A stretch of DNA of 56,889 bases. Origin: Candidatus Kapaibacterium sp. (GTDB lineage Bacteria > Bacteroidota > Ignavibacteria > Kapaibacteriales > Kapaibacteriaceae). The stretch covers positions 1 through 56,889 of the forward strand of contig VEQR01000009.1 in the NCBI GenBank assembly GCA_018883125.1. The letters run 5' to 3'. Within the stretch, counting starts at the first letter, position 1. Each line of letters begins with the position of its first letter. Both the position numbers and the translations under genes were made by a program. Positions 6,557-56,337 of this stretch are shown here, piece after piece. The notes under the pieces are model-generated. The model was not told the origin of the DNA and searched no databases. It saw only the letters and a program-made list of their open reading frames with translations.

Positions 6557-8212
<1,656 letters not shown>

Positions 8213-8240
8213 TCCTACGATCAGTCGTCTCACGAATTAC

Positions 8241-8279
8241 ACGCAGCGCCCGATCCCACCCGTGGGGTCGGGCGTTTGC
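8241..8279 (+). terminator. groEL terminator hairpin, copy 1 of a 39-bp direct repeat
   Basis: A 12-bp stem (CGCCCGATCCCA with TGGGGTCGGGCG, one G-T wobble) with a 4-nt loop lies 34 bp after groEL and is followed by TTT. The 39 bp at 8241-8279 recur without mismatch at 9999-10037, downstream of the next gene. Confidence 0.8.
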
Positions 8280-8349
8280 CGTTGTGCAGAAGCTCTGCGA
8301 CGAATGTCCGAGACAAGGTTGTCAATCCACTGCTAATATTTCTTGTCAC

Positions 8350-8382
8350 AGACATTGTAAACATGTCATAAAGCAAATGTCT
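8350..8382. promoter_or_regulatory. Inverted repeat upstream of the 497-residue secreted protein gene
   Basis: AGACATT at 8350-8356 and AATGTCT at 8376-8382 form a perfect 7-bp dyad with a 19-bp spacer containing ACATGT. It lies about 105 bp before the likely start at 8487. It could be an operator, but no regulator is known. The rest of 8213-8486 holds the groEL terminator and nothing else I can identify. Confidence 0.25.
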
Positions 8383-8486
8383 CAAAATACCGATTGTAAG
8401 GGATTGTTCGGGGCCGCCAACACCGTAGGTTCGTGAAACGAGAAATTCTTCGTGTACTTTTCTTGTCCTGTTTCGGAGGTATTGCT

Positions 8487-9980
8487 ATGCGACATAGATG
8501 GCAACAGCATCGTAAGCGGTCCGGTGTTATGGCAGGATCGAATATGCGTAGCTCCAGGCTCCACGCAGTTTGGTGGGTGTTCACAGGTATGGTCTCAGTC
8601 GTTTGTCAACGCATCACCATTGCCGCAGCGGCTGCGGCTATAGTCACCATCGCATTGACATCAATTACAGCACTGGCTCAGCCGCAACCTGAAGCGTTGC
8701 GTTGCTCATTTCACAAAGAGTACGCCCGCCACAACTGGCTGGCGTTTCTCACCGATGAATTCGACTCGACGATTGTTGAATGGTCATTCGGCGAGGTGCG
8801 CATAGACTATCCCAGCGACACACAGTTTGTCTTCCTGGAAATGTCACGAGAGGAGTTCTTCTCCCAAGGCAGATGCTGCTCGGTGCGAGGTACGCCAACA
8901 CCGGGACCGGACGGAAAGCTTGGTGAAGCGGCACGGACGCAGGTGTTTTCCTATCGAGAAGGATCGTCGATGACATTTGTAAGGCAAACGTCAACACAGC
9001 TAAAGGGGTCCAGTGAGGTCCACATATCCGCTCTGGATGCCCAGTGCCCTTGGGCATCCTGGCGAGACTGGAAAAATGCCATCTACCCGCAAGACGTTTT
9101 GGATACTATGGAAGTTGCGCTTGAGCTGGTTGATGCATCTACTCAACGGCGTCTGCTTCTGCTGGATTCGGTTCAACTATATGCGTCACCAGGCTGTAAG
9201 CTCCTAACCAGACGTGGTACGAATCCGAACGTTAGTGTGCACAGGGTTCAACTTCCCGGCGAGTTCGCAAACCGTCGGGTTTATGTGCGTCCGCTGCCCT
9301 ACCGACGTGGCCCAACTCCACTCGGGCTTCAGCATACCAAAGAGCAGTTTGATTGGAACGTTGCTCACTTGCTCTACGATGAGCATACCACTCCGCTTGA
9401 CAACCTTCCCCGATGGTTAGCCGATCCGCAGTGGTATCCCACAGGGAAGACGCCATGGGATACGATGCAGACGTCATACGCTGATGAGTACATTCGGACG
9501 CAATACGCTCAGCTTGGTGGCGATTCCTGTATACCCACTGTTTTCGGCAATAAGGCACTACCGAGAGAGCGAGCGACAGACATCAGTCAGCTGTTAAAGA
9601 CTATGGGGCTCGTGAAATACAGTCAGAGATGCTTTGACCGGAACAAGGCAGATACGGCTTGGATTCTCTCTACGCTGCTGCCAGTGCCACTCGAAAAACA
9701 AAGGATCGATCTAGCGGCGAAGCCAGCAGGCCAAGTCATCCTCAGGGCTCGCTCTATGGACGGTAATCTCTTGGTAACTCTCGATGGTACGAAAAGTCAA
9801 CGAAATCGGATAGTTGCGTATGATGTAACGGGCGCTGAGATCTTCCGTGGTACCTGCCCTCCGGCACCGTTTGCGGACGTGCAGATTCCCCTTCCGAATT
9901 CGATTCAAGGTAGCGTCTTTATACGTTGCATGATGTCGGATGGCACGGAAGTGTCCACATCGGCGCAGCTGGTACGTTAA
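8487..9980 (+). CDS. Secreted protein of unknown function with T9SS-like C-terminal domain
   Basis: The track ORF starts with GTG at 8433. The ATG at 8487 has GGAGG 7 bp upstream and gives 497 residues. A long basic N-region leads into a hydrophobic signal segment (ITIAAAAAAIVTIALTSITALAQ), cleaved near ALAQ. The body (about 60-400) contains many Trp, Tyr and Pro residues and several Cys pairs, with no motif I recognise. The last 80 residues (GQVILRARSMDGNLLVTLDGTKSQRNRIVAYDVTGAEIF) have the beta-rich layout of T9SS sorting domains but lack the usual PNP opening. The gene stands alone between two identical terminator hairpins and its composition looks more AT-rich than its neighbours. Function is unknown. 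Confidence 0.75.
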   Translation: MRHRWQQHRKRSGVMAGSNMRSSRLHAVWWVFTGMVSVVCQRITIAAAAAAIVTIALTSITALAQPQPEALRCSFHKEYARHNWLAFLTDEFDSTIVEWSFGEVRIDYPSDTQFVFLEMSREEFFSQGRCCSVRGTPTPGPDGKLGEAARTQVFSYREGSSMTFVRQTSTQLKGSSEVHISALDAQCPWASWRDWKNAIYPQDVLDTMEVALELVDASTQRRLLLLDSVQLYASPGCKLLTRRGTNPNVSVHRVQLPGEFANRRVYVRPLPYRRGPTPLGLQHTKEQFDWNVAHLLYDEHTTPLDNLPRWLADPQWYPTGKTPWDTMQTSYADEYIRTQYAQLGGDSCIPTVFGNKALPRERATDISQLLKTMGLVKYSQRCFDRNKADTAWILSTLLPVPLEKQRIDLAAKPAGQVILRARSMDGNLLVTLDGTKSQRNRIVAYDVTGAEIFRGTCPPAPFADVQIPLPNSIQGSVFIRCMMSDGTEVSTSAQLVR

Positions 9981-9998
9981 TACTTGCAGCCAAATGAA

Positions 9999-10037
9999 AC
10001 GCAGCGCCCGATCCCACCCGTGGGGTCGGGCGTTTGC
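9999..10037 (+). terminator. Terminator hairpin, copy 2 of the 39-bp direct repeat
   Basis: It is identical over 39 bp to 8241-8279, with the same 12-bp stem, 4-nt loop and trailing TTT. It begins 18 bp after the stop codon of the secreted protein gene. Outside the 39 bp the two copies diverge at once. Confidence 0.8.
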
Positions 10038-10082
10038 GCTAATGGTGTTATCATGCAGGTAAATGCACCATAGGACGTCTTT

Positions 10083-10499
10083 ATGAAGCCCAATCTGCGT
10101 CGCCTACTTGCCACGATCTCTGGTCTTGCTGCCGGCATCCTCGTGATTGCAGCCCTGGAGATGTTTGGTCACGCTCTCTTTATGAACGGTGCGCCAATGC
10201 CTTCGGCCACCGACCCGGCTGCTGTTCAGGCCTATGCCGAGGGTATGAGCTTTGGAGCACTGGCAACCTTGCTGGTGGCCTGGTGCGCCGGCGCATACGT
10301 CGGCACTGTGGTGGCTGTTCGTGTTGCACGTGGAGCTGAACGAACGATGTCGCTGCTGATAGGGGGCTTTGTTCTTGCCTCTACGGTAATGAACTTCTTC
10401 CAGTTTCCTCATCCGATGTGGCTGATGATCAGTGCAATCGTTCTGATCCCGGTCGCATCTTGGTTGGCCATTCCGAGACGTTCCGCGGGTGCGGCGTGA
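10083..10499 (+). CDS. Small four-helix membrane protein, unknown
   Basis: The 138-residue protein has four predicted membrane helices: about 9-30 (LLATISGLAAGILVIAALEMF), 55-80 (GALATLLVAWCAGAYVGTVVAV), 90-107 and 113-130. A short soluble loop (NGAPMPSATDPAAVQAYAEGM) joins the first two. It lacks catalytic or transporter signatures I can name. Its stop overlaps the GTG start of the following iron-permease-like gene, so they form a translationally coupled pair. Confidence 0.65.
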   Translation: MKPNLRRLLATISGLAAGILVIAALEMFGHALFMNGAPMPSATDPAAVQAYAEGMSFGALATLLVAWCAGAYVGTVVAVRVARGAERTMSLLIGGFVLASTVMNFFQFPHPMWLMISAIVLIPVASWLAIPRRSAGAA

Positions 10500-10906
10500 G
10501 GCGCCCAAGTGTGTACGGCAGATTTGCGAAGGCGGTGGCCCGCTTTGCCGGACGTCCGGCAACGTTCGCCTGGGCGGTACTGACGATTGTGGTCTGGCTG
10601 GCCTCGGGGCCTGTATTCGGCTTCAGCGACACCTGGCAGCTGGTGATCAATACTGCCACCACGATTGTGACATTTCTGATGGTGTTTCTCATCCAGAACA
10701 CGCAAAACCGCGATACGGAGGCGCTTCACCTGAAGCTTGATGAACTTATCAGGGTCACCCAAGGGGCACACAACCGCATGCTGGACCTTGAGCAGATGGA
10801 GGAAAAGAGTCTCGACGAACTTCGGCTGAAATATGAGGCCCTGGCCAAAGCAGCACGCCAGGCCTCCGAACACGGTGTTTCTGATACGGATTCGCCGGAA
10901 CTTTGA
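10496..10906 (+). CDS. Low-affinity iron permease family (Fet4-like domain) protein
   Basis: The track ORF begins at 10418 inside the upstream gene. The GTG at 10496 overlaps that gene's TGA and gives 136 residues, VRRPSVYGRFAKAVARF onward. The sequence RPATFAWAVLTIVVWLASGPVFGFSDTWQLVINTATTIVTFLMVFLIQNTQNRDTEALHLKLDELI is characteristic of the bacterial low-affinity iron permease family: two membrane helices, then a conserved QNTQNRD motif and a cytosolic helical tail. Family members are annotated by similarity to yeast Fet4; transport activity of the short bacterial forms is not well proven. Confidence 0.8.
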   Translation: MRRPSVYGRFAKAVARFAGRPATFAWAVLTIVVWLASGPVFGFSDTWQLVINTATTIVTFLMVFLIQNTQNRDTEALHLKLDELIRVTQGAHNRMLDLEQMEEKSLDELRLKYEALAKAARQASEHGVSDTDSPEL

Positions 10907-28511: not shown

Positions 28512-29639
28512 ATGCCCCGTCCCACGGCCATTCTTGCCCTCGAAAACGGTTTAACGATCGAGGGTACGGCTATTGGTGCAGTCGGGGCCGAATGCTCGGG
28601 CGAACTGGTCTTCAATACGGCCATGTCGGGGTATCAGGAGATCCTCACCGACCCGTCCTACAAGGGACAGATCGTCACCTTCACCTACCCGCACATCGGC
28701 AACTACGGGGTTAGCCCCGACGATGTGGAGTCCGACCGTATTCAGGCTTCTGGCCTTGTGGTGCACGAGCTCTCACCGGTGGTGTCGAACTATCGGGCGA
28801 CAGGCTCGCTGCAGTCCTATCTCGAATCCGAGGGCATTGCCGGCATTGAAGGCGTAGACACGCGCATGATCGTTCGCATTCTCCGCTCGGAGGGGGCTAT
28901 GCGCTGCGTGATCGCTCATGGAGAGAACCTTGACGGACGTGAACTCGTTGAGCGTGCGCGCAATGTTCCGTCCATGAACGGTCTTGATCTTACGCCGCTG
29001 GTAACCACCAAAGCCCCTTATCATGTTGGTGAGCGTGGCATCACGGAATGGGATTACCGTCCGGAGGTCCGCGGTTCCGGAGCGCGGCCCCACATCGTAG
29101 CACTCGATTTCGGCATCAAGCGCAATATCCTTCGTCGGCTTGTCCATCATGGCTTCGACGTAACAGTTCTGCCGGCCGATACCTCGGCCGAGGGGGTGCT
29201 TGCGCATAACCCCGACGGTGTATTCCTGAGCAACGGTCCCGGAGATCCAGCAGCCGTGACGTCGGCCATCGAATGTGCCAAGGGGCTTATCGGGAAGAAG
29301 CCGATCTTTGGCATCTGCCTTGGTCACCAGATCCTCTCACTGGCCGTGGGAGCCTCCACCTACAAGCTCAAGTTCGGTCACCGCGGGGCCAACCATCCGG
29401 TGAAGAATCTCGCAACGGGCGGTATCGAGATCACGTCCCAGAACCACGGATTCGCCGTCGACCCGGATTCACTGCCGCAGAACGTGACAATGACGCATGT
29501 GAACCTGAATGATCAGACCTGCGCCGGCATCGCGCTTACGGATGCCCCGGCCTTTGCCGTGCAGTACCACCCCGAGGCCAGCCCGGGGCCTCACGACTCC
29601 GACTACCTCTTCGATCAGTTCCGGGCCATGGTTGGGTAG
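28512..29639 (+). CDS. carA: Carbamoyl-phosphate synthase small (glutaminase) subunit
   Basis: The ATG at 28512 has GGAG 6 bp upstream; the track's TTG start at 28500 is rejected. The 375-residue subunit hydrolyses glutamine and passes ammonia to CarB for pyrimidine and arginine synthesis. The N-terminal CPSase domain shows [37 protein letters not shown]. The class I glutamine amidotransferase domain has [12 protein letters not shown], the nucleophile Cys in [16 protein letters not shown] and the His-Glu pair in [15 protein letters not shown]. carB is not in the window. The last codons and stop lie in a 34-bp sequence repeated at 32304-32337. Confidence 0.97.
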
Positions 29640-29648
29640 GGGGCGAGG
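29615..29648 (+). repeat. 34-bp direct repeat, copy 1 (carA 3' end)
   Basis: This copy covers the last eight carA codons, its TAG stop and 9 bp beyond. It is identical to 32304-32337. The two copies bracket about 2.65 kb holding only the split beta-propeller gene. The layout resembles an attachment site at a gene 3' end, but no integrase is present. Confidence 0.9.
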
Positions 29649-29686: not shown

Positions 29687-31588
29687 CTAGTCATTGAGTA
29701 CGAGAATCAGCCGCTGCAGGGTGGCGCTACCCGTGGAAAGATGTGCTACGTATGTGCCGGTAATGCCGCGTTGAACCTGGATTCGCTCTCCGGTGAGTGT
29801 GTAGAGAGCAAGGAGCGTAAGATCACTGCGCTGCCATTGGTTCAGGTGTTCCTGCCATGACATCGCCAGGTGCCCCACGTCGGTGACGGTGGAGACAGCA
29901 GCTCCGGAATTCTGCTCCACGCCGGAGGTCACACGTGTTCCGTACACTCCCGTCGACGTGCAGTAGTAAACACGCTTTCCTTGTTCATACTGGAACATGG
30001 ATATCACGTACGTTCCGGCTGGGATGCCGGGCACGTCGTACAATTCCCACGTCAGGCCGTTGTCCTTACTGCCCAGCACACCGTCATTAGCCAACAGGAT
30101 AAGCGTGCCGTTGGCCTCAACAACACCGTTGCCACCGAGAAGTCGGTACGGGGTAGAACAATACGACGTATGCACAAGATTCCACGACCTGCCCATGTCC
30201 GCCGAGCGGACAACGAAATGGTCGAGGGCGGAATGGTTCTTTGTCTCCAGCGGTGGTGCCTGGTCATCAGACTTGACCGGAGCCGTGTCGCGTACAACCC
30301 GCGTTGCCGAGGCTACGATCGAGCCGTCCGGCAGAAGCAGGTGTCCAAGGAAATACGGAGACTCCAAGGGTTGGCTACTCCGCTTCCAGGTGCGACCCTT
30401 GTCGGTCGAGTGCGCGATGAAGCCACCCCGATATGGTTTGTTTTCGAGCGACTCGTTGTCCCAGATTTCCATGCCGTTGACAAATGCCACCACTGAGCCG
30501 TCGGGCATCTCGGTCATAGAGCTGACGAAACCTGTGCCTGCGGACGAGGTGGTGTCGAGCCGGGAGAGGTCAAACGACACGGAGTCACCAGAGCCGAAGA
30601 CACGGATCACGCAGCTGTCAGCGACAATCAGTTCTGTCGATCGCATCCTCAGTACGGCGGTTGCAGGCCCATCATGCAGGGTGGCCATGTAGCGCCCGTC
30701 GCGGCTGAGCTGTTTCACCGTGGTTCCCGGCATGATGACCTCGCTTTCCCCGATGAATGGGGTGCGCAGTCCCCTGCGACTCTGGATTCGTGGTCCATGG
30801 AGGTTTGCATAAAAATGGGTCTCACCACGGACGGCACTGGCACGAACCAGGCCGGGCCGTCCGGCTTCTTTGACAATTGCCATATCGTGCGGGCCCACGA
30901 CAACAGCATTCTCCGAGGAATCGGTAAATCCCAATAGCGTGGGAATCACCTTCAATGGTTCAAGATCCCGACACAGTTCATTCAACCACAACACTTCGCC
31001 ATCCCCTCGAACCAGTGCTATAGGACGTGATTCGGCAATATGGTAAACCTGAATCAGGGAGTCCGAAATGCTCTTGAACCCCTCGCCCAATGAAACAAAG
31101 AACCCTGGTCGAATCGCGCCCTGTTGCACCTGAGTGGAATCACGGGTAAGGTCTACCTTAGAATACTCCAGTTCCTTGGCGGAGGTCCGATTTACTGTCA
31201 TCAGTGGGGTGTATTGCACGTTGGCAGACGCAGCCGAGATTCCGGGAACGGAATCACGAAGAACCCATTGGCCGTGGAGCCATTCGGCATACCAGTCATC
31301 GGATGAAATCATGTACAAACGTCCCGCCCCTGTGGACCGCAGGCGCACGGTGCGCAAATTGATGATCCCCGGCAGGCCGCGTACGGTTATCGATGTGTCA
31401 AATCGAAAGCGCGTTGTGTCGGAAAGATGGCACATCCATAGCGTATCAGGATTGCTGGTCGTCCGCCCCGTGGCTATCCACGCCAAACTGTCTGGGCCAA
31501 GTTTCGCATTCTTCCGCTGATCACGGCTGAAGCGTGGCACCGGATGCACGCGATTGCCTTGGCCGGGGGCGCACGCAAAGAACCGCAC
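29687..31588 (-). CDS. Secreted beta-propeller-like protein, 3' part of a gene interrupted by TAG
   Basis: The 633-codon ORF has no signal peptide, and its nominal start is a GTG. It lies in exactly the same frame as ORF 31595-32239, from which it is separated only by TAG and two codons, so the two are one gene (about 850 codons). Repeated motifs such as STDKGRTWKRSSQP, SADMGRSWNLVHTS and SKDNGLTWELYDVP are BNR/sialidase-type Asp-box repeats of beta-propellers. The last 80 residues (LTLLALYTLTGERIQVQRGITGTYVAHLSTGSATLQRLILVLND) fit a T9SS sorting domain. Without readthrough this part would be untranslated or cytosolic. It sits between 34-bp direct repeats. Confidence 0.7.
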   Translation of the reverse strand: MRFFACAPGQGNRVHPVPRFSRDQRKNAKLGPDSLAWIATGRTTSNPDTLWMCHLSDTTRFRFDTSITVRGLPGIINLRTVRLRSTGAGRLYMISSDDWYAEWLHGQWVLRDSVPGISAASANVQYTPLMTVNRTSAKELEYSKVDLTRDSTQVQQGAIRPGFFVSLGEGFKSISDSLIQVYHIAESRPIALVRGDGEVLWLNELCRDLEPLKVIPTLLGFTDSSENAVVVGPHDMAIVKEAGRPGLVRASAVRGETHFYANLHGPRIQSRRGLRTPFIGESEVIMPGTTVKQLSRDGRYMATLHDGPATAVLRMRSTELIVADSCVIRVFGSGDSVSFDLSRLDTTSSAGTGFVSSMTEMPDGSVVAFVNGMEIWDNESLENKPYRGGFIAHSTDKGRTWKRSSQPLESPYFLGHLLLPDGSIVASATRVVRDTAPVKSDDQAPPLETKNHSALDHFVVRSADMGRSWNLVHTSYCSTPYRLLGGNGVVEANGTLILLANDGVLGSKDNGLTWELYDVPGIPAGTYVISMFQYEQGKRVYYCTSTGVYGTRVTSGVEQNSGAAVSTVTDVGHLAMSWQEHLNQWQRSDLTLLALYTLTGERIQVQRGITGTYVAHLSTGSATLQRLILVLND

Positions 31589-31594
31589 TGGAGA

Positions 31595-31597
31595 CTA
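31595..31597 (-). other. In-frame amber codon splitting the beta-propeller gene
   Basis: On the minus strand the sequence reads CGC AGC TAG TCT CCA GTG CGG. The frame is open on both sides for hundreds of codons. CAG to TAG is a single transition. TAG ends bona fide genes here (carA, rplK), so it is not reassigned. Confidence 0.85.
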
Positions 31598-32239
31598 GCT
31601 GCGCAGAAGCATGGGGTGGGTGTTCACGACCTTATACATCGTGTTTGGCACCTCGAACCATGATTGACCGCAGTCAATACTAGCCAAATGCAAGCGGTTG
31701 CTATCGGGCCGTAGGATTTCGATAAGCACCGAGCCAGGCGGACCGAATTCCGAGTCTGTTAAAATGCCCTCCTTTGGAACGATCGGTCGGACCGTGCCGC
31801 TGACATCAATGTGGTACAGCAACGGTTCAAAGAACCCCCGCAAATAAAGAAGTGCACTTCCGTCGAGACAGCGATTGACGTAGCTGTACTGATATCCGGG
31901 AGAAACTTCTTTCACGGGCATCAGCTCCCCTGAGGCCAAATTCACGGAAAACATGCCATTTCTGCCCACGACAGCATACAGGGTGGCAGTTCCTTCCTTC
32001 CGGCTGCCGGTTTCGAATATCGTCCGAAGCCCCGAAGTCGAAGGATCCCGCTCCCGATAGACTAATTCAACCTGTTGTGCGCCGGAGGGGAGGGTGGAAA
32101 TCGTCAATAGCAATACCGTTAGAAGGGCCCGCAAATCGCGCTCGTTCAATGATCGCTCGTTCCAGTTCGTGCAACAACTACAGGTAATCTCTGGTGCAAT
32201 GTCATTCGAAAGACGATAGTCGGCAACAACACCATACAA
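31595..32239 (-). CDS. 5' part of the interrupted secreted beta-propeller gene
   Basis: The ORF begins with TTG at 32239, but the signal peptide (LRALLTVLLLTISTLPSGAQQ) suggests initiation at a TTG near 32149 or 32134; no strong ribosome binding site helps. After the signal the sequence (VELVYRERDPSTSGLRTIFETG, LYAVVGRNGMFSVNLASG, YQYSYVNRCLDGSALLYLRG, HLASIDCGQSWFEVP) has the strand-turn pattern of a beta-propeller, including an Asp-box-like DCGQSWFEVP. It stops at TAG after LLRS, and the same frame continues as ORF 29687-31588. On its own it would be a truncated propeller without a T9SS domain. Confidence 0.6.
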   Translation of the reverse strand: MYGVVADYRLSNDIAPEITCSCCTNWNERSLNERDLRALLTVLLLTISTLPSGAQQVELVYRERDPSTSGLRTIFETGSRKEGTATLYAVVGRNGMFSVNLASGELMPVKEVSPGYQYSYVNRCLDGSALLYLRGFFEPLLYHIDVSGTVRPIVPKEGILTDSEFGPPGSVLIEILRPDSNRLHLASIDCGQSWFEVPNTMYKVVNTHPMLLRS

Positions 32240-32303: not shown

Positions 32304-32337
32304 TCAGTTCCGGGCCATGGTTGGGTAGGGGGCGAGG
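32304..32337 (+). repeat. 34-bp direct repeat, copy 2
   Basis: It is identical to the carA 3' end at 29615-29648, but here it encodes nothing and lies 78 bp before tRNA-Tyr. Just downstream, at 32349-32359, stands GCGGGAATCCA, an 11-bp half unit of the REP-like repeats seen at 56 kb. Confidence 0.9.
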
Positions 32338-55997: not shown

Positions 55998-56220
55998 GTC
56001 ATTCCCGCGAACGCGGGAATCCATGCGCAACCCCGTCATTCCCGTGAACGCGGGAATCCATGCGCAACCCCGTCATTCCCGTGAACGCGGGAATCCATGC
56101 GCAACCCCGTCATTCCCGCGAATGCGGGAATCCATCGATCCGTATCGTCATGACCCATGGACCCCGGCTTTCGCCGGGGTGACGCCCGTACCCCGTCATT
56201 CCCGCGAATGCGGGAATCCA
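55998..56220. repeat. REP-like palindromic repeat array
   Basis: Five units of the form GTCATTCCCGCGAAYGCGGGAATCCA are present. Units 1-3 are perfect 37-bp tandem repeats in spacing (55998, 56035, 56072), each with the spacer TGCGCAACCCC. Unit 4 starts at 56109 and unit 5 at 56195. Each forms a short hairpin (CCCGC/GCGGG with a 4-nt loop; a G-T wobble in units 2 and 3). Between units 4 and 5 a different hairpin, ACCCCGGC/GCCGGGGT, stands at 56161-56180. The gene-free stretch 55914-56337 consists of this array, the preceding hairpin and about 115 bp without recognisable features before mazE. Confidence 0.9.
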
Positions 56221-56337
56221 CCGACCCATGTCGTGAGGCCCGTCGTCGTAGCCAATCATACAATGCCAGTTAGGATAACGTTGGAACATTGTTACTACTT
56301 TTGAAAATCTCACTAGTTCGAAGTCACGGAACAGCTC

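What the first reader, a model, noticed from the sequence alone, without database searches (positions are those of the whole stretch)
8241..10037. Lone secreted-protein gene between two identical 39-bp groEL terminator copies
The 39 bp containing the groEL terminator hairpin (8241-8279) recur without mismatch at 9999-10037, directly behind a single gene for a T9SS-like secreted protein. The intervening 1.7 kb looks more AT-rich than its surroundings. The simplest history is insertion of a one-gene cassette at the groEL terminator with duplication of the hairpin, or recombination through a shared mobile terminator. No transposase or integrase is visible. Together with the carA case this suggests a recurring way of placing T9SS cargo genes next to 3' ends of housekeeping genes.
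Basis: partly seen in the sequence, partly recalled or inferred. Interest (0 to 1): 0.75.

Follow-up and report, generated by a model that had tools for sequence, protein, structure and literature searches.

The report
Gene inserted between duplicated groEL terminators
In an uncultured Kapaibacteria-type bacterium a secreted-protein gene sits behind groEL between two identical copies of the groEL terminator, and at least three other insertions in this genome and a sister species are likewise flanked by 34-49 bp copies of the host gene's end, which points to a recurring integrase-free way of adding accessory genes.

Summary
The 39-mer (8241-8279 and 9999-10037) is exact and occurs only twice in the genome, so it is not a terminator family. 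Between the copies lies one gene of an undescribed secreted family with a T9SS-type C-terminal fold. In outgroups groEL adjoins the next gene directly. Sister species G001 carries a related cassette between two identical 49-bp copies of the same hairpin, with its own loop sequence. G009 has one hairpin and two unrelated genes. Synonymous sites are near saturation between G000 and G001, so the copies were homogenised, or duplicated anew, in each lineage. The carA case is also real: 34 bp of the carA 3' end are repeated around a 2.7-kb insert that seven relatives lack. Sampling the two genomes gave two more: a Septu defence pair behind a glycosyltransferase (37 bp) and a cassette behind a P-type ATPase (34 bp, inside copies otherwise 68-74% alike). 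No recombinase or terminal inverted repeats were found. Best reading: accessory cassettes integrated by recombination at a short stretch identical to a host gene's 3' end, akin to minimal mobile elements. The mechanism is inferred. T9SS cargo is frequent but not the rule; a mobile terminator is not supported.

The parts
6584..8212 (+). groEL, host gene upstream of the insertion
   Evidence: ORF; 77-99% identical groEL in the relatives searched
8241..8279 (+). Terminator-like hairpin, copy 1 (groEL 3' UTR)
   Evidence: Exact repeat; hairpin -28.4 kcal/mol
8378..8399 (+). Promoter-like element TGTCTCAAAATACCGATTGTAA shared with other loci, mostly secreted-protein cassettes
   Evidence: 8 sites in G000, 2 in G001, 1 in G006, 0 in the reversed control; contexts
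8433..9980 (+). Cargo gene, secreted protein of a family with T9SS-type C-terminal domain (likely start 8487)
   Evidence: Family alignment of 22 members; AlphaFold model and Foldseek
9999..10037 (+). Terminator-like hairpin, copy 2, behind the cargo gene
   Evidence: Exact copy of 8241-8279; 5' flank CCAAATGAAACG resembles the G006 groEL 3' UTR CCAAATCAAACG
10083..10499 (+). Small predicted membrane protein (DUF138 in this report), directly behind groEL in outgroups
   Evidence: Synteny
10505..10906 (+). Low-affinity iron permease family gene, conserved neighbour
   Evidence: PF04120 E 1.6e-53
29615..29648 (+). carA 3' end with stop codon, direct repeat copy 1 of the second insertion
   Evidence: Exact 34-bp repeat
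29687..32239 (-). carA cassette: ORFs 633 aa and 214 aa, together matching one roughly 845-aa secreted protein (split gene)
   Evidence: tblastn of both ORFs to consecutive parts of the same homologues
32304..32337 (+). carA 3' end, direct repeat copy 2
   Evidence: Exact 34-bp repeat; insert absent in seven relatives

Best explanation
The segment is an accessory-gene cassette (promoter-like element plus secreted-protein gene) that entered between groEL and its downstream neighbour and left the groEL terminator on both sides, so that groEL and the cargo each keep a terminator. It is one case of a recurrent process in these bacteria: cassettes without a recombinase gene integrate at the 3' end of a housekeeping gene by recombination, through a roughly 34-49 bp stretch identical to that gene end. 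The crossover leaves this stretch as a direct repeat and keeps the host gene intact. RecA- or annealing-type homologous recombination with a circular or captured donor is my preferred mechanism (inferred). Later recombination between the repeats can homogenise them or delete or exchange the cargo (inferred). Shown by sequence: the repeats, empty sites or empty gene order, different cargo at one site, and species-specific identity of the groEL repeat pair.
For: Two copies only in the genome. Empty gene order in outgroups; different cargo in G000, G001, G009, G002, G011, G012. Two 49-bp copies in G001 with a G001-specific loop, although pS is 0.48-0.71 at neighbouring genes. Copy 2 in G000 keeps a groEL-UTR-like 5' flank. 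Paralogous cargo genes elsewhere lack the hairpin. The carA insert has a 34-bp repeat and is absent in seven relatives. G001 Septu insert with a 37-bp repeat ending at the stop codon. In the G001 ATPase case a 34-bp identical tract lies inside copies otherwise 68-74% alike, as expected of recombination at the longest identical run. No terminal inverted repeats.
Against: No donor molecule, circle or polymorphic strain was seen. A homologous stretch of 34-49 bp is near the lower limit for RecA (general knowledge). No relative with one groEL hairpin of this type and no cargo was found. G009 has cargo but only one hairpin. The GT (Septu) and ATPase sites have no empty-site comparison. All genomes are MAGs; assembly error cannot be excluded for carA, GT and ATPase, each seen in one MAG. 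Such inserts are rare: none in 347 kb of G008 and G010.
Confidence: 0.5

Rival explanations
1. One old insertion with hairpin duplication in the ancestor of G000 and G001; afterwards only gene conversion or selection kept the hairpins alike. Nothing about the cassette is mobile and the other cases are unrelated accidents.
For: The tree puts G000 as sister to (G001,(G009,G006)), so one insertion followed by loss or replacement in G009 is parsimonious; the hairpin stem is conserved in three species.
Against: The cargo is more diverged at synonymous sites (pS 0.85) than its neighbours (0.48-0.71). Cargo turns over at the same place, and three other genes show the same kind of 3'-end repeat.
Confidence: 0.2
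2. Non-autonomous integrative elements moved by a site-specific (tyrosine) recombinase in trans; the repeats are att cores at gene 3' ends.
For: Direct repeats at gene 3' ends that keep the gene intact are typical of such elements (general knowledge); seen here at carA and the glycosyltransferase.
Against: The four kinds of repeat share no sequence, so one enzyme could hardly serve all; no integrase in the cassettes or the neighbours scanned; no conserved arm sequence between the G000 and G001 groEL cassettes.
Confidence: 0.14
3. Insertion by an unknown transposition or break-capture event with a long staggered cut, giving 34-49 bp target duplications.
For: Repeat lengths of 34, 34, 37, 39 and 49 bp with unrelated sequences; flanks unrelated on both sides at groEL, carA and GT.
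Against: No terminal inverted repeats; in the ATPase case the repeat lies in two diverged homologous copies, not in a fresh duplication.
Confidence: 0.1
4. Ordinary multicopy terminator or REP-like family, or an assembly artefact.
For: REP-like GC-rich repeats do occur in this genome (window near 56 kb; L070; L238).
Against: Exactly two copies genome-wide; an independent MAG of a sister species shows the same architecture with its own variant.
Confidence: 0.03

Closest known systems
Minimal mobile element (MME) of Neisseria (Saunders and Snyder 2002; definition read in PMC3898611)
   Same: A site between two conserved genes that holds different whole-gene cassettes in different relatives, with no mobility genes.
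   Different: Here the cassette is bounded by 34-49 bp direct repeats of the host gene's 3' end or terminator. Exchange through long flanking homology is not shown, and comparison is between species, not strains.
Phage 'moron' cassettes (own knowledge; no paper on them was read)
   Same: One gene with its own promoter-like element and a hairpin terminator, inserted between genes adjacent in relatives.
   Different: Chromosomal, and the terminator is a copy of the upstream host gene's.
Integrative elements using tyrosine recombinases at gene 3' ends (own knowledge)
   Same: Direct repeats at the ends; the host gene 3' end is restored.
   Different: No integrase, small cargo, unrelated repeat sequences at different sites.
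Neisserial DUS-containing terminators (PMC2397512)
   Same: Hairpin terminators linked to DNA exchange.
   Different: DUS are abundant genome-wide; this hairpin occurs twice.

Membership tests
Minimal mobile element | Different whole-gene cassettes between the same two conserved genes in relatives | tested here: met
   groEL to DUF138/TatD interval: ORF515; 162 aa + 471 aa; 995 aa + 658 aa; 967 aa; 921 aa; 506 aa + 295 aa; or nothing
Minimal mobile element | No recombinase or transposase in the cassette | tested here: met
   Single cargo gene without a recombinase domain; neighbours scanned
Minimal mobile element | Incorporation solely by homologous recombination | not testable with these tools
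   Only indirect: identical tracts at the junctions, and the ATPase case
Tyrosine-recombinase integrative element | att-like direct repeats at a gene 3' end | tested here: met
   carA 34 bp and GT 37 bp include the stop codon
Tyrosine-recombinase integrative element | Integrase gene in the element | tested here: not met
   None in the groEL, carA or GT inserts
Insertion sequence or MITE | Terminal inverted repeats and a short target duplication | tested here: not met
   No inverted repeats at the insert ends; duplications of 34-49 bp
REP-type or multicopy terminator repeat family | Many genomic copies | tested here: not met
   Two copies within 3 mismatches; at most 2 at groEL in relatives
Phage moron | Own promoter and terminator | tested here: inconclusive
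   Shared promoter-like element and hairpin present; transcription not tested
T9SS cargo protein | C-terminal T9SS sorting domain | tested here: inconclusive
   Fold matches the RemA CTD (8gl6_D, TM 0.70 on the target, Foldseek E 5.9e-3); the Pfam and NCBIfam models do not hit

The most novel reading that the evidence does not exclude
Kapaibacteria possess an unrecognised cassette system that repeatedly places accessory genes (secreted proteins, phage defence) behind housekeeping genes by recombination at 34-49 bp of gene-end identity, with terminator or gene-end duplications acting as reusable docking sites for exchange.
Probability: 0.15. Interest if true: 0.8.

Novelty: new variant of a known kind. 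Interest (0 to 1): 0.52.

Why it matters
Bacteria gain and lose small accessory genes constantly, yet how one-gene insertions without transposases or integrases arise is poorly understood. Here junctions are preserved well enough to read: host gene ends duplicated as exact 34-49 bp repeats, species-specific homogenised terminator pairs, and one case with an identical tract inside diverged homologues. That makes the recombination route directly testable in related genomes or in the laboratory.

Tried and rejected
Terminator family: rejected by the genome-wide count. Rfam: no match in 8150-10150. Cargo bringing its own hairpin from a paralogous locus: paralogues in C49, C31 and C132 share coding and promoter-element similarity but not the hairpin. 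A general link to T9SS genes: 103 T9SS-tail matches in G000, but about 565 kb of stretches chosen for them showed no clear further repeat-flanked cassette, only tandem duplications and internal repeats, and the G001 GT case carries Septu. G006 could not inform: its groEL contig ends within 2-3 bp of the hairpin start and no close TatD was found. Literature searches for terminator duplication, islets without integrase, and groEL as insertion site gave nothing on point.

Full report
OBSERVATION. The 39-bp direct repeat is exact and not a chance event. It occurs twice in the whole 2.9-Mb assembly within 3 mismatches. It folds as a strong hairpin with a short T tract. Copy 1 lies 28 bp behind the groEL stop, copy 2 18 bp behind the stop of the only gene between them. 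The insert is slightly AT-richer than the window (52.1% against 56.2% GC).

CARGO. The 515-codon ORF (likely start 8487, behind GGAGG) has no Pfam or NCBIfam match but belongs to a family with members in nine of 21 genera sampled in the order (alignment). An AlphaFold model (mean pLDDT 78.6) shows a C-terminal beta domain that matches the T9SS RemA C-terminal domain (8gl6_D, TM 0.70 on the target, E 5.9e-3); many homologues end in similar tails. It is therefore probably a T9SS-exported surface or secreted protein. Paralogues in the same genome (C49, C31, C132) lie in small secreted-protein operons. Several share a promoter-like element TGTCYCAAAAnnCyGATTGTwA, found 8 times in G000, twice in G001 and once in G006, and never in the reversed control.

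COMPARISON AT groEL. In G003, G005 and G008 groEL is followed directly by DUF138, in G007 by the iron permease, in G004, G010 and G015 by TatD: the insertion-free order. Their groEL terminators are unrelated to the 39-mer. G001 has a 162-aa secreted ORF plus a 471-aa relative of ORF515 between two identical 49-bp copies of the hairpin, with the loop CCCACCGTGTGGGG instead of CCCACCCGTGGGG. G009 has one hairpin (loop CCCATTCGTGGGG) and two unrelated ORFs of 995 and 658 aa. G002, G011 and G012 have still other ORFs between groEL and TatD. The interval is thus a turnover site. In a five-gene tree G000 is sister to (G001,(G009,G006)).

WHY THE PAIRS MATTER. G000 and G001 differ at 48-71% of synonymous sites in the genes around groEL and 85% in the cargo, yet within each genome the two hairpins are identical, loops included, while between genomes the loops differ. 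Either the pair is homogenised by recombination or each lineage duplicated its terminator anew. The high cargo divergence weakly favours replacement, but saturation limits this inference. The 5' flank of copy 2 in G000 (CCAAATGAAACG) matches the groEL 3' UTR of G006 (CCAAATCAAACG; 0 of 2000 shuffles), so copy 2 descends from a groEL terminator and the original duplication was somewhat longer than 39 bp.

THE carA CASE AND TWO MORE. In the window, 34 bp comprising the last 25 bp of carA with its stop and 9 bp more recur 2.69 kb downstream. The insert is a secreted-protein gene split into two ORFs (633 and 214 aa) that match consecutive parts of roughly 820-860-aa homologues. It is absent in G001, G003, G005, G006, G007, G008 and G009, where carA is followed within about 100 bp by tRNA sequence (tRNA read by eye from the sequence). 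G002, G004 and G010 have other sequence there. A survey of sampled stretches (about 0.72 Mb of G000, 0.48 Mb of G001, 0.35 Mb of G008 and G010) found further repeat-flanked inserts in G001: (i) a Septu pair (PtuA 1.8e-160, PtuB 3.6e-84) between two exact 37-bp copies of the last codons and stop of a glycosyltransferase gene; (ii) a cassette with the promoter-like element behind a P-type ATPase, where a degenerate copy of the ATPase 3' end lies beyond the cassette and a 34-bp stretch is identical although the aligned surroundings are only 68-74% alike. In G000 a Fic gene lies between 33-bp identical ends of two similar small ORFs; this one is ambiguous.

MECHANISM. Shown: repeats of 34-49 bp made of host gene ends or terminator; intact host genes; no terminal inverted repeats; no recombinase in the inserts or in the neighbours scanned; cargo turnover. 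Inferred: integration by recombination at a short identical stretch, either RecA-type single crossover with a circular molecule or annealing of captured DNA. The lengths lie near the minimum usable for homologous recombination (general knowledge), and the ATPase junction looks like a crossover or conversion tract within diverged homologues. A trans-acting integrase is less likely because the repeats share no sequence; a long-stagger transposition is possible but does not explain the ATPase case.

KNOWN SYSTEMS. The site fits the description of minimal mobile elements (PMC3898611) in anatomy, and the unit resembles phage morons; neither is known to me to carry duplicated host terminators. Membership in integrase-driven elements, IS or MITE, and REP families fails on tested features.

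LIMITS. MAG assemblies; no strain-level data; the GT and ATPase sites lack empty-site comparison; the survey covers only part of each genome; relative dating rests on saturated synonymous sites.

Noticed in passing
window 8378-8399; G000 C12, C31, C49, C90, C132; G001 C6, C84; G006 C24: Shared promoter-like element TGTCYCAAAAnnCyGATTGTwA, often upstream of small secreted-protein genes: a candidate regulon or alternative sigma factor promoter.
   Followed up: partly
L251 2267-4544 (G001:C11): Septu PtuAB defence pair inserted behind a glycosyltransferase gene with an exact 37-bp duplication of the gene end.
   Followed up: partly
L144 2640-6002 (G001:C6): Cassette flanked by an intact and a degenerate P-type ATPase 3' end sharing a 34-bp identical tract.
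   Followed up: partly
L310 622-2051 (G000:C19): Fic-domain gene between two small ORF 3' ends that share an exact 33-bp tract in about 80% identical left flanks.
   Followed up: partly
window 29687-32239: Secreted-protein gene at carA is split into two ORFs (frameshift, pseudogene or assembly error).
   Followed up: partly
L070 (G000:C49): Tandem array of ORF515-type secreted-protein units with repeated upstream regions and REP-like hairpins.
   Followed up: no
L229 (G000:C116): Recent 6-kb tandem duplication of a giant T9SS gene including its terminator.
   Followed up: no
window 55998-56221: Array of REP-like hairpin repeats (GTCATTCCCGCGAACGCGGGAATCC).
   Followed up: no
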